Source of the DNA: Pseudomonadota bacterium
GTDB lineage: Bacteria > Pseudomonadota > Alphaproteobacteria > Rhizobiales > Pleomorphomonadaceae
Assembly (NCBI GenBank): GCA_018262505.1
Contig: JAGSYV010000003.1
Location: 1 to 64,000 of the forward strand
Reading direction: 5' to 3'
DNA: 64,000 bases
Below are positions 60,699-64,000 of the stretch, piece after piece (position 1 is the stretch's first letter; every line of letters starts with the position of its first letter). Made by a program: the position numbers and the translations under genes. The notes under the pieces are model-generated. The model searched no databases. It worked only from the letters and a program-made list of their open reading frames with translations, and was not told the DNA's origin.

Positions 60699-60776
60699 CG
60701 GGCAGTAGCGCAGCCTGGTTAGCGCACGTGTCTGGGGGACACGGGGTCGGAGGTTCAAATCCTCTCTGCCCGACCA
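60699..60776 (+). tRNA. tRNA-Pro(GGG)
   Basis: CGGGCAG acceptor pairs with CTGCCCG; anticodon stem CGTGT/ACACG with loop CTGGGGG (anticodon GGG); GGTTCAAATCC T-arm; encoded CCA. Confidence 0.95.
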
Positions 60777-60859
60777 TTCTTTCCCCTGATTTTGTTATGT
60801 TTTCCGCTTTAAGCCAGCGGTGGTTTTGCTGCGCCTAAGGGAACGAAACAGCGCCAAAA

Positions 60860-60987
60860 TCCCGGATTGAGAGCGAACAGTCCCGGAAAAATCCCGGACG
60901 ACGTTCTTCGTTTGATCTCATGAAAACGAGTCGAAAATTACCTAGCTGACTCCCTGTGTCTGCTGACTCTGGGCTGTCAGTTGACTC
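60860..60987. repeat. Two sets of short direct repeats between tRNA-Pro and the Y-family polymerase
   Basis: TCCCGGA at 60860, 60881, 60892; TGACTC at 60947, 60964, 60982. Confidence 0.6.
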
Positions 60988-61006
60988 CATCCTCCGTTCA
61001 GAACGA

Positions 61007-61021
61007 GAACATAAACAGAAC
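61007..61021 (+). promoter_or_regulatory. Alphaproteobacterial LexA/SOS box
   Basis: GAAC-ATAAACA-GAAC (GTTC-N7-GTTC on the minus strand), 25 nt upstream of the polymerase start. Confidence 0.7.
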
Positions 61022-61046
61022 ATGGCAGGTGGATGGATGGCACAAA

Positions 61047-62315
61047 ATGCGCAAGCCGGAGACGATTGAGCGCTTGTATCTTGATTTTGATGGCTTTTTT
61101 GCCAGCGTCGAGCAGCAATGCAATCGTAAACTCCGGGGGCGCCCGGTCGGTGTGGTCCCCTTCGAAGGCATGGGCGATCGAGGGATGCTCATCGCGGTCT
61201 CACGGGAGGCAAAGGACGTTGGTATCAAATCGCTGATGTCTGTTCGCGAGGGTATGGCGATATGCGCCGACTTGGTCACCGTGCCCCAAAAACCCGACCT
61301 TTATCGAAGGGCACACAACGAACTGCTCTCAGAAATCGAAACCGTCATTCCCATCGACACAGCCAAGAGCATCGACGAGCTGACGTGTATCCTCGATGAA
61401 GATGGGCGCCGGAAGCCCGAGGACCTGGCGCACCGCATCAAGACAGCGATTCGCGACAACATAGGTCTCTTCATCACCGCCACGATCGGCTTCGCCGCGA
61501 ATCGGCAACTATCCAAGATGGCCTGCAAAGCAGGCAAGCGGTCACGCGGCCTCTATGGCGACGGCTTGGCGGTCTGGAAGCCGGAGGACATGCCGGCACC
61601 GCTTTTCAAGGTAAAGCTTGACGACATCCCTGGCGTTGGTAGCCGCTTGGCGAGTCGCCTGCGCGGCATGGCCATCTATAGCGCCGAGGATCTCTATAAC
61701 CTCCAGCCAAAGCACATGCGCAAGATATGGCGGAGCGTTGTCGGCGAGCGCCTTTGGTATGCGCTGCACGGTTATGACATTCAGGCCGCAGCGAGCGAAC
61801 GAGGCATGTTCGGCCACGGCCGCGTGCTGCCACCTGAAGCGCGCAATCCCAAAGCAGCGAGGGAAATTTCCCGCCTGCTGATGACCAAGGCGGCCCGGCG
61901 CCTGCGTCGCGAGGGCTATTACGCCGGTGGGTTATGGCTGTGGCTGTCGATCCGCAATGGATCGTGGTTTCGCCAGATGCCACTGCCCATCGTCAATGAC
62001 GATCAAGCCATTCTCGCCGCGCTTGGCGTCCTCTGGGCGCACTTCTCCGACGAACACCCAGGGCGGCCAACCATTTTCCGGGTTGGCGTTACGTTGTTCG
62101 GCCTTTCACCCGCGAACGAACGCCAGCTCGACTTCCTGCTGGAAGATGACAATGAGCGGCGGAAGTGGGAGGCCACCAACACGGCGGTCGACGAGCTGAA
62201 TTCCAAATATGGCGGCACCGTCGTTAGCCTCGGCCCATGGCGACCGCCGGCCGGTGGTCACGTCGGCGGCAAGATCAGCTACACGCGCATCCCTTCAGCA
62301 GAGGACTTTTGGTGA
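61047..62315 (+). CDS. Y-family DNA polymerase (UmuC/ImpB-like)
   Basis: YLDFDGFFASVEQQ, PFEGMGDRGMLIAVSREAKDVGI, SIDEL catalytic acids, DDIPGVGSRLASRL helix-hairpin-helix. Track start 60981. Confidence 0.92.
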   Translation: MRKPETIERLYLDFDGFFASVEQQCNRKLRGRPVGVVPFEGMGDRGMLIAVSREAKDVGIKSLMSVREGMAICADLVTVPQKPDLYRRAHNELLSEIETVIPIDTAKSIDELTCILDEDGRRKPEDLAHRIKTAIRDNIGLFITATIGFAANRQLSKMACKAGKRSRGLYGDGLAVWKPEDMPAPLFKVKLDDIPGVGSRLASRLRGMAIYSAEDLYNLQPKHMRKIWRSVVGERLWYALHGYDIQAAASERGMFGHGRVLPPEARNPKAAREISRLLMTKAARRLRREGYYAGGLWLWLSIRNGSWFRQMPLPIVNDDQAILAALGVLWAHFSDEHPGRPTIFRVGVTLFGLSPANERQLDFLLEDDNERRKWEATNTAVDELNSKYGGTVVSLGPWRPPAGGHVGGKISYTRIPSAEDFW

Positions 62316-62319
62316 CATC

Positions 62320-62565
62320 ATGGGCAACTGGCAAACCAAGTTTCAGGTTCGAGACCTTGCCGCGGGACAGAGGCTCGAATGCATATGCCGGCGATGCGGG
62401 CATCTGCTTTACCTCAGCAAGGCATCACTGCCGGGCCAGGAACAGAAGTTCATAGACGAGATCCAGAAGGCCGAGCGCTGCACCGCCAGAGGTTGCAACG
62501 GACCGGTGAGGATCTCGCTCGTCCGGTTGGACGAGATGAGCGGCTTCGTTGGCGGTTTGGCTTAA
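62320..62565 (+). CDS. Small Cys-rich (zinc-ribbon-like) protein
   Basis: 81 aa; LECICRRCGHLLYLSK ... ERCTARGCNGPVRISLVRLDEM; start 4 nt after the polymerase stop. Confidence 0.75.
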   Translation: MGNWQTKFQVRDLAAGQRLECICRRCGHLLYLSKASLPGQEQKFIDEIQKAERCTARGCNGPVRISLVRLDEMSGFVGGLA

Positions 62566-62721
62566 GGAGAATGACGGCTTTCAGGTGACTTCAACCAAAT
62601 AGCTGACCTTTGCTCCGCCATGTAGATGCCGCTCCAGTCGTCACACCTTTTGGCGTAAACTGCAGAAGCCGGTTTGTCGCTTTCGCTCACAGTGTTAGGC
62701 TGAGGGGTAGAGGGGGATGCC

Positions 62722-64000
62722 GTGTTCATCGCAGAAATTCGGATCGAGAACTTTCGCTTGTTTGGCGCAGGTGATCAGGCCTTTGTGCTCCCGCTGAGGC
62801 CGGGACTTACCGCACTGGTCGGCGAGAATGATGCAGGCAAGACCGCGGTCATTGATTCGCTCCGGTTGGTGCTGGGCACGCGCGACCAGGATATACTGCG
62901 CGTCGATCCGATGGACTTCCATCAGGCGACGCCTGGCGGCGAGCGCGCCGACCAAATCGTCGTCCGGCTGACCTTCCGCGGCCTGACCATCGCCGATCGC
63001 GGCGCTTTTGCCGAGTTCCTCACCTATGAGATGATCGACGGCGCTAACGACACCGCACTGATCGTGACCTGGGTGGCGAAGCGCAATGCCAAGGAAGGCA
63101 GCTCGCGCCGGGTGCTGCCGCCCGAATGGCGCACCGGCGCTAAAGGCGACGGGCCGCTGCTCGACCTGGGGGCGCGATCGCTACTAACCGCGACCTATTT
63201 GCGGCCCTTGCGCGACGCCGAGCGGGCGATGAGCGCCGGGCGAGGATCACGACTGTCGCAGATCCTCCAGCACACCAAAGAAATCCGCGACACCGGCAGC
63301 CCGTTTGACAAGTTTGCCGACCCGCCGGACGACCCGAAGACGCTGAGCGTGTTGGGCGTGGGCGACTATGCCAGCTATTTGTTCGGCGAGAGCGAAGGCA
63401 TCAAGCAGGCTCGCAAGCGGCTCAATGACGAGTATCTAAAGCCGCTCTCATTCGCCAACGATCTGCTGCACGCGCGCATTGGCGTGGCCGGAGCGCAGGA
63501 AGACAGCCTTAGATTGCGCCAGCTGCTCGAGAAGCTCGAACTCGCATTGACCGCATCGGCCGATGACGAGAGCGCTCATAGCCGCGGGCTCGGCTCTAAC
63601 AACCTGCTGTTCATGGCGTGCGAGCTGCTGCTGCTCGCGGCTGAAAGCGACGGTTTCCCGCTCCTGCTTATCGAAGAGCCCGAGGCGCATCTCCACCCGC
63701 AGCGCCAGCTGCGGCTGATGTCGTTCTTGCAGGAACAGGCGGAGAAGATACGCGCCGACGGACAGCGCATCCAGATCATCGTCACGACTCACAGTCCCAA
63801 CCTCGCCTCGGACATGCAGCTCGGCAATCTTGCGCTGATCGAGGGCGGGCGGGCATTCCCGCTATGCGAAGGCAAGACCAAGCTTAGCGCATCGGACTAT
63901 CGATTTCTCGAGCGCTTCCTCGATGTGACCAAAGCGAACCTGTTCTTCGCCCGAGCGGTGCTGATCGTTGAAGGCGATGCCGAGAATATCCTGCTGCCGG
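62722..64000 (+). CDS. OLD-family ATP-dependent endonuclease (ABC-type ATPase + TOPRIM), truncated by window edge
   Basis: GTG start after GAGGGGTAGAGGGGG; read by eye: VFIAEIRIENFRLFGAG...LTALVGENDAGKTAVIDSLRLVLG (Walker A), LLLIEEPEAHLHPQRQLRLM (Walker B), IIVTTHSPNLAS, ARAVLIVEGDAENILLP (TOPRIM start). Not in the ORF track. Confidence 0.88.
   Translation, partial: MFIAEIRIENFRLFGAGDQAFVLPLRPGLTALVGENDAGKTAVIDSLRLVLGTRDQDILRVDPMDFHQATPGGERADQIVVRLTFRGLTIADRGAFAEFLTYEMIDGANDTALIVTWVAKRNAKEGSSRRVLPPEWRTGAKGDGPLLDLGARSLLTATYLRPLRDAERAMSAGRGSRLSQILQHTKEIRDTGSPFDKFADPPDDPKTLSVLGVGDYASYLFGESEGIKQARKRLNDEYLKPLSFANDLLHARIGVAGAQEDSLRLRQLLEKLELALTASADDESAHSRGLGSNNLLFMACELLLLAAESDGFPLLLIEEPEAHLHPQRQLRLMSFLQEQAEKIRADGQRIQIIVTTHSPNLASDMQLGNLALIEGGRAFPLCEGKTKLSASDYRFLERFLDVTKANLFFARAVLIVEGDAENILLP

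What the first reader, a model, noticed from the sequence alone, without database searches (positions are those of the whole stretch)
60699..64000. tRNA-Pro-anchored accessory segment: SOS-controlled Y-family polymerase + small Cys-rich protein + OLD nuclease
Directly after tRNA-Pro(GGG), the housekeeping context (plsX-fabH-ihfA-merR) ends. The next genes are a UmuC-like polymerase without UmuD, a coupled 81-aa Cys-rich protein, and an OLD-family ATPase/TOPRIM protein. OLD proteins are core components of phage-defence systems (P2 Old; GajA of Gabija), and tRNA genes are common island integration sites. The co-location with an SOS-inducible mutagenic polymerase and a small putative zinc protein is not a defence arrangement I recognise. 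The right part is cut off, so partners (e.g. a UvrD-like GajB helicase or an integrase) cannot be seen.
Basis: partly seen in the sequence, partly recalled or inferred. Interest (0 to 1): 0.75.

Follow-up and report, generated by a model that had tools for sequence, protein, structure and literature searches.

The report
Prophage end: SOS polymerase operon, Gabija
The segment is the left end of a virus genome integrated at a tRNA gene; it carries a standard phage-defence system (Gabija) next to an unrelated, widely mobile DNA-damage-induced operon that pairs a mutagenic DNA polymerase with a small four-cysteine protein not found in the curated family libraries or papers searched.

Summary
The contig continues 43.7 kb. 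The OLD gene (62722) is GajA and the next gene is GajB: a complete Gabija system. Both lie at the left end of a prophage in tRNA-Pro(GGG). Most same-genus genomes have merR, tRNA-Pro, LacI and PTS contiguous; here LacI/PTS lie on another contig behind a 46-bp copy of the tRNA 3' end and an integrase.

The polymerase and Cys-rich gene are a separate module. In 99 related loci from viral and genome contigs the small gene follows the polymerase in 95 of 97 testable cases, usually with overlapping stop/start codons. An alphaproteobacterial LexA box precedes 94 of 97 (0.6% of control windows). All four cysteines are invariant. The pair is 11-fold enriched beside tRNA genes, so it is recurrent mobile-element cargo. 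Gabija lies near none of the 99: the link to the OLD nuclease is incidental.

Best reading: an SOS-induced error-prone polymerase with a zinc-ribbon-like partner in place of UmuD/YolD. That is a likely new variant of a known kind; the interaction and function are inferred.

The parts
60699..60776 (+). tRNA-Pro(GGG), intact copy at the left attachment site (attL)
   Evidence: ARAGORN; all 78 bases identical in 11 same-genus genomes, where the tRNA is followed by host genes
60732..60777 (+). 46-bp attachment-site core; second copy on contig C6 beside the integrase (attR)
   Evidence: exact duplicate found once on C138 and once on C6
61007..61021 (-). LexA (SOS) box GTTCTGTTTATGTTC of alphaproteobacterial type
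   Evidence: box present in 94 of 97 homologous loci versus 36 of 6127 control windows; near-identical box before imuA in the same genome
61047..62315 (+). Y-family DNA polymerase (polY; PGAP name for relatives 'type VI secretion protein ImpB'), catalytic residues intact, clamp-binding-like RQ[LIM]D motif, RecA-NT/DUF4113-like motif and conserved C-tail
62320..62565 (+). 81-aa Cys4 protein (cysR), small zinc-ribbon-like partner candidate
   Evidence: coupled to polY in 95 of 97 loci; C23, C26, C54, C59 invariant in 96 of 96; no family in Pfam, NCBIfam, PHROGs or PADLOC
62722..64000 (+). GajA (OLD-family ATPase/TOPRIM nuclease), continues to contig position 64779; followed by GajB (64783-66780), both outside the window on the right
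   Evidence: PADLOC GajA E=9e-204 and GajB E=2e-166; OLD class 2 nuclease match in PDB with EGDAE and TDxD conserved

Best explanation
The segment is the left (attL) end of a prophage integrated into tRNA-Pro(GGG) of a Pleomorphomonas genome [shown]. It carries two independent cargo modules. Module 1 is a LexA-repressed two-gene operon: an apparently active Y-family translesion polymerase and a translationally coupled 81-aa Cys4 protein [gene linkage and box shown; regulation inferred]. Most likely, DNA damage lifts LexA repression, and the polymerase works as a multi-subunit error-prone polymerase: it binds the sliding clamp through its RQ[LIM]D motif and RecA through its RecA-NT-like motif, while the zinc-ribbon-like protein takes the place that UmuD' has in Pol V and YqjX/YolD has in Gram-positive YqjW/UvrX [inferred]. 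It would help the prophage, plasmid or host tolerate damaged DNA. Module 2 is a complete Gabija system (GajA nuclease + GajB helicase) inserted between the operon and the phage late genes, which would protect the lysogen against other phages [family membership shown, activity inferred]. The two modules are neighbours by shared location, not by shared function.
For: Prophage: the 46-bp tRNA 3'-end repeat beside a tyrosine integrase on C6; in 9 of 11 same-genus genomes merR, tRNA-Pro, LacI and PTS are contiguous, whereas here LacI/PTS lie beyond attR; terminase, maturation protease and primase in between. Gabija. Operon: small gene after polY in 95 of 97 loci, stop/start overlap in 82 of 95, four Cys invariant 96/96; LexA box 94 of 97 versus 0.6% of control windows; cysR-linked polymerases form one clade, support 100/100. 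Active enzyme: D13, D15 and D110 in 98/98, E111 in 97/98; RQ-x-D motif in 98/98. RecA-NT-like motif: among 24,736 Pfam families, DUF4113 matches 21 of 51 C-tails (best E 0.005) and the next family 3; PMC6511836 shows the DUF4113 N-terminal part is homologous to the RecA oligomerisation motif. SRAP, an SOS-linked DNA-repair family, neighbours the pair in 24 of 99 loci. Separate modules: Gabija near 0 of 99, and a related prophage without it.
Against: No experiment shows that the two small-operon proteins interact. A single-chain model of polymerase plus Cys4 protein (pTM 0.40; shallow alignment for the polymerase part) left the conserved tails of both disordered and gives no support for an interface. 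The conserved polymerase C-tail also occurs, in similar form, in relatives without the small gene (for example GTKIAFNRVPDLEEF), so it need not be the binding site of the small protein. The DUF4113 matches are below Pfam's gathering score, and direct RecA comparison was uninformative: hhalign probability 2% though in the expected register, and a BLOSUM test that also failed on a UmuC positive control. Zinc binding is inferred from four invariant cysteines; Foldseek hits to zinc ribbons have E of at least 0.2 in PDB. C138 and C6 are not joined, so the whole prophage is not seen in one piece.
Confidence: 0.6

Rival explanations
1. The Cys4 protein is not a polymerase subunit but an SOS-induced regulator or DNA-binding zinc protein (for example a transcription or anti-LexA factor, or a damage-site binder) that merely shares the operon.
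For: Zinc ribbons are common in DNA-binding proteins; weak Foldseek similarity is to DNA-binding zinc domains (MCM); the fused model shows no interface; the polymerase tail is conserved also without the gene.
Against: Near-invariant, overlapping coupling to one clade of polymerases across Hyphomicrobiales, Sphingomonadales and others points to a stoichiometric partner; cysR without polY is rare: of three other hits in 288 alphaproteobacterial genomes, two have polY adjacent and the third is weak.
Confidence: 0.3
2. polY, cysR and Gabija form one composite anti-phage unit in which SOS mutagenesis or gap filling works with the GajAB nuclease-helicase.
For: Adjacent on the same strand here; other defence genes (MzaBCE, a type IIG restriction enzyme, PDC-S06, a methyltransferase) lie near 4 of 5 polY-cysR loci of the same genus.
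Against: 0 of 99 homologous loci have Gabija nearby; GajA is absent from the 39 relatives searched; 157 bp without coupling separate the two modules; among the nearest neighbours of 38 non-redundant loci few match PADLOC models.
Confidence: 0.04
3. The polymerase pair is an ordinary host SOS gene set and the segment is a stable part of the chromosome, not mobile.
For: The LexA box is of the host type and resembles the host imuA box.
Against: Empty site in same-genus genomes and duplicated attachment core; patchy presence at different sites in the genus; 11-fold enrichment beside diverse tRNA genes; copies on plasmids and viral contigs.
Confidence: 0.03

Closest known systems
Gabija (GajA-GajB)
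   Same: OLD-family ATPase/TOPRIM nuclease followed directly by a UvrD-like helicase; best PADLOC models GajA and GajB over nearly full length
   Different: No difference found; it is carried at the attL end of a prophage
E. coli DNA polymerase V (UmuC-UmuD'2-RecA)
   Same: SOS-controlled Y-family polymerase co-expressed with a small partner; clamp-binding-like motif and DUF4113-like (RecA-NT) motif in the C-tail
   Different: No UmuD peptidase; the partner is an unrelated Cys4 protein encoded after, not before, the polymerase; polymerase outside the UmuC branch, though long branches make that placement unsure
YqjW/UvrX with YqjX/YolD (Gram-positive putative mutasome)
   Same: SOS-induced, often prophage-borne polymerase plus a small non-UmuD protein in one operon (PMC6511836, PMC12926913)
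   Different: YolD has an SH3-like barrel and lies upstream (for example phi3T); here a Cys4 zinc-ribbon-like protein downstream; alphaproteobacteria
UmuC-like polymerase with SRAP-like protein (type reported in PMC12926913)
   Same: SRAP genes flank polY-cysR in 24 of 99 loci, so the polymerase group may overlap with theirs
   Different: The main text does not mention the Cys4 protein; the SRAP gene is optional here and absent from the window locus
ImuA-ImuB-DnaE2
   Same: Same LexA-box type; present elsewhere in this genome (imuA-imuB on C104)
   Different: ImuB is catalytically dead; polY keeps its catalytic residues and no ImuA or DnaE2 is beside it
Prophage defence hotspots (P2/P4-like, PMC9122126)
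   Same: Defence system in the accessory part of a prophage between conserved genes
   Different: Here only one prophage with Gabija was seen at this spot; exchange with other defence systems in the same phage family was not demonstrated

Membership tests
Gabija | GajA: ABC-type ATPase plus OLD-type TOPRIM | tested here: met
   PADLOC GajA E=9e-204 over residues 1-661; OLD TOPRIM E=6e-17; EGDAE and TDxD aligned to OLD class 2 nuclease
Gabija | GajB: UvrD-like helicase directly beside gajA | tested here: met
   ORF 64783-66780, 3 bp after gajA; PADLOC GajB E=2e-166
Gabija | Protection against phages | not testable with these tools
   needs plating assays
Integrated prophage at tRNA-Pro | Integrase and duplicated attachment core with an empty site in relatives | tested here: met
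   46-bp core on C138 and C6, integrase beside attR, 9 of 11 same-genus genomes with the uninterrupted order
Integrated prophage at tRNA-Pro | Virion and packaging genes inside | tested here: met
   terminase large subunit, head maturation protease, primase, processivity factor
LexA (SOS) regulon of alphaproteobacteria | GTTCN7GTTC operator in the promoter region | tested here: met
   box 61007-61021; 94 of 97 homologous loci; box type as in Caulobacter (PMC9578287)
LexA (SOS) regulon of alphaproteobacteria | Induction by DNA damage | not testable with these tools
   needs expression data
Y-family DNA polymerase | Catalytic aspartates/glutamate in the palm | tested here: met
   D13, D15, D110 in 98 of 98 and E111 in 97 of 98; aligns to Pol IV structures
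Pol V (UmuCD) | UmuD partner gene | tested here: not met
   no UmuD gene beside polY in the window; the coupled gene is an unrelated Cys4 protein
Pol V-like, RecA-dependent multi-subunit polymerase | RecA-NT/DUF4113 motif after the clamp motif | tested here: inconclusive
   DUF4113 is by far the commonest Pfam match of the tails (21 of 51, best E 0.005) but below gathering score; direct RecA comparison weak
YqjX/YolD family | Pfam YolD domain in the small partner | tested here: not met
   no Pfam hit for the Cys4 protein at E up to 0.1
Zinc ribbon | Two Cys pairs on beta-hairpin knuckles binding zinc | tested here: inconclusive
   four Cys invariant in 96 of 96; model with hairpins, pLDDT 80; zinc-domain hits in PDB not significant; metal not tested

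The most novel reading that the evidence does not exclude
polY-cysR is a previously unnamed type of SOS-induced multi-subunit error-prone polymerase, spread by prophages and plasmids of Alphaproteobacteria, in which a zinc-ribbon protein has replaced UmuD/YolD as the obligatory small subunit, working with RecA and sometimes with an SRAP protein.
Probability: 0.4. Interest if true: 0.7.

Novelty: new variant of a known kind. Interest (0 to 1): 0.5.

Why it matters
Two surveys of bacterial Y-family polymerases (PMC6511836, PMC12926913; main texts) list partners of translesion polymerases (UmuD, YqjX/YolD, ImuB-C, SRAP-like) but no Cys4 small protein. If the Cys4 protein is an obligatory subunit, it would be another independent solution to controlling a mutagenic polymerase, carried by mobile elements that bring inducible mutagenesis to their hosts. 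The pair has also entered Gammaproteobacteria next to tet(Y) resistance genes. The Gabija part is ordinary. The annotation 'type VI secretion protein ImpB' hides these polymerases in databases.

Tried and rejected
Joint defence unit: rejected by 0 of 99 linkage. Defence-gene enrichment around polY-cysR in general: a hint within the genus (4 of 5 loci), but few PADLOC matches among neighbours of 38 wider loci; no matched control was run, so left open. Direct comparison of the polymerase tail with RecA N-termini: hhalign found the expected register with 2% probability; a BLOSUM window test was uninformative because UmuC, the positive control, also failed. Structure search of the small protein: no significant match in PDB or the viral library. 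GajA search in phage records found nothing at E up to 1e-20.

Full report
What is there. The window is the first 64,000 bases of a 107,720-base contig (C138) of a 5.28-Mb draft genome. The genus is Pleomorphomonas, because a genome marked 'same genus' has a contig of exactly the length (193,093) of a Pleomorphomonas sp. NRK KF1 record that holds the same gene.

Extension to the right. The OLD ORF is 685 aa (62722-64779) and is followed after 3 bp by a 665-aa UvrD-like helicase (64783-66780). PADLOC calls them GajA (E=9e-204) and GajB (E=2e-166), and the TOPRIM part aligns to a solved OLD class 2 nuclease with the acidic motifs conserved. This is a complete Gabija system. After a membrane-anchored 237-aa ORF in a low-GC stretch (51%), phage genes on the minus strand fill the rest of the contig: deoxynucleotide kinase-like, endolysin, tail, maturation protease, terminase, primase.

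The segment is the end of a prophage. The 46-bp 3' part of the tRNA gene (60732-60777) occurs a second time on contig C6, directly beside a tyrosine integrase, with SSB and DnaN-like genes behind it. In 9 of 11 same-genus genomes the order merR, tRNA-Pro (100% identical), LacI, PTS is contiguous; here LacI and PTS lie on C6, on the far side of the second copy. The intact tRNA in the window is therefore attL, and the prophage spans at least 46.9 kb on C138 and 7.8 kb on C6. The two contigs are not physically joined. Two other same-genus genomes have different host genes after the tRNA.

The polymerase and the Cys-rich protein are one operon. Relatives were collected from viral contigs (19 loci) and genome contigs (best 80 of 213), with plasmids searched separately. 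In 95 of 97 loci with enough downstream sequence the small gene follows the polymerase; in 82 of 95 the stop and start codons overlap. C23, C26, C54 and C59 are invariant in 96 sequences, with W4, D12, E20, F76 and G78-G79 nearly so. A GTTCN7GTTC box lies within 200 bp upstream in 94 of 97 loci, against 36 of 6127 control windows from the same loci. The box in the window (61007-61021) nearly equals the one before imuA in this genome, and the motif is the published alphaproteobacterial SOS box (PMC9578287). The bare pattern is not enriched genome-wide, so the evidence rests on its conservation at this position.

It is mobile cargo. tRNA genes are 11 times denser within 1 kb of the pair than elsewhere in the same loci (18 in 156 kb versus 10 in 944 kb); 16 of the 18 have their 3' end towards the pair, as expected next to an attachment site. 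The tRNAs are diverse. In the genus the polymerase is present in the window genome and 4 others at different places. Across 289 alphaproteobacterial genomes the small gene is found in 4, two of them besides the window genome with the polymerase adjacent. The loci are partly related, so the counts are not independent events.

It is not linked to Gabija. None of 99 homologous loci has GajA or GajB homologues in the sequence held around the pair, up to 8 kb each side. GajA was found in no relative. In the most similar prophage (L009, polymerase 86% identical, small protein 91%) the pair is followed directly by the phage kinase gene, whereas here 6.3 kb with Gabija lie between. Within the genus, other defence genes (MzaBCE, type IIG restriction enzyme, PDC-S06, methyltransferase) lie near 4 of 5 other copies. 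In a wider set of 38 loci few nearest neighbours match defence models; the commonest named neighbour is SRAP, in 24 of 99 loci.

How the pair probably works. The polymerase keeps its catalytic residues in nearly all members and an RQ-x-D motif that resembles a clamp-binding motif. Its C-tail matches DUF4113 in 21 of 51 members, best E 0.005, with no other family above 3; PMC6511836 showed that this motif is homologous to the RecA oligomerisation motif and marks polymerases that act with RecA and often with a small partner. The Cys4 protein is predicted as a small beta-hairpin fold with a disordered but conserved C-terminal tail (pLDDT 80 overall, about 42 in the tail). A polymerase with such a tail, co-translated with a small protein under LexA control, resembles Pol V and YqjW-YqjX, so the likeliest role is that of a UmuD/YolD substitute. 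This is inference: the fused model gave no interface, and a similar polymerase tail exists in relatives without the small gene, for example L202.

Relation to known systems. The cysR-linked polymerases form one clade (100/100) apart from Rhodobacterales 'ImpB' and 'UMUC-like' relatives without the small gene; the placement of UmuC, UvrX and DinB is unsure because of long branches. The main text of the 2026 survey names 11 complex types and mentions a UmuC-like/SRAP link, but no Cys4 partner; supplements could not be read, so prior notice cannot be excluded. Aravind et al. 2013 (PMC3765255) mention two Zn-ribbon-like domains in SRAP-Ku neighbourhoods; whether one is this family could not be checked.

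Noticed in passing
L194:5001-6547 (Aeromonas salmonicida pBY3) and L192:5980-6252 (Aeromonas bestiarum pAb5S9): The polY-cysR pair lies between ISVsa3 and tet(Y) on a gammaproteobacterial plasmid; in pAb5S9 the small gene lies between aph(6)-Id and tet(Y) with no polymerase annotated beside it. Ten Acinetobacter plasmids also hold the small gene but gave no full polymerase match. 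This suggests the tet(Y) segment carries a relic of an alphaproteobacterial operon.
   Followed up: partly
L073:7329-7934, L078:7323-7907, L082:7331-7906 and others: SRAP (SOS response associated peptidase) genes lie within 8 kb of polY-cysR in 24 of 99 loci, often divergently about 60 bp upstream or directly downstream.
   Followed up: partly
L209:5243-12051, L211:7184-14454, L210:17461-19101: Other polY-cysR loci of the same genus stand near a type IIG restriction enzyme, an Mza-like system (MzaB, C, E) and a PDC-S06 candidate defence gene.
   Followed up: partly
contig C138:66961-68838 (right of the window): A low-GC (51%) stretch with a 237-aa membrane-anchored ORF without family match lies between GajB and the phage genes; possibly further cargo.
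   Followed up: no
L202, L203 and other cysR-less relatives: More distant polymerases without the small gene keep a similar C-tail (GTKIAFNRVPDLEEF), so the tail has a function not tied to the Cys4 protein.
   Followed up: partly
database annotation of homologues: These polymerases are named 'type VI secretion protein ImpB' in RefSeq plasmid records, a misleading name that confuses them with secretion genes.
   Followed up: no
L141:1277-3615 (same-genus genome G012): A 2.3-kb insertion separates tRNA-Pro(GGG) from LacI in another genome of the genus, so the site may have been used by other elements.
   Followed up: no
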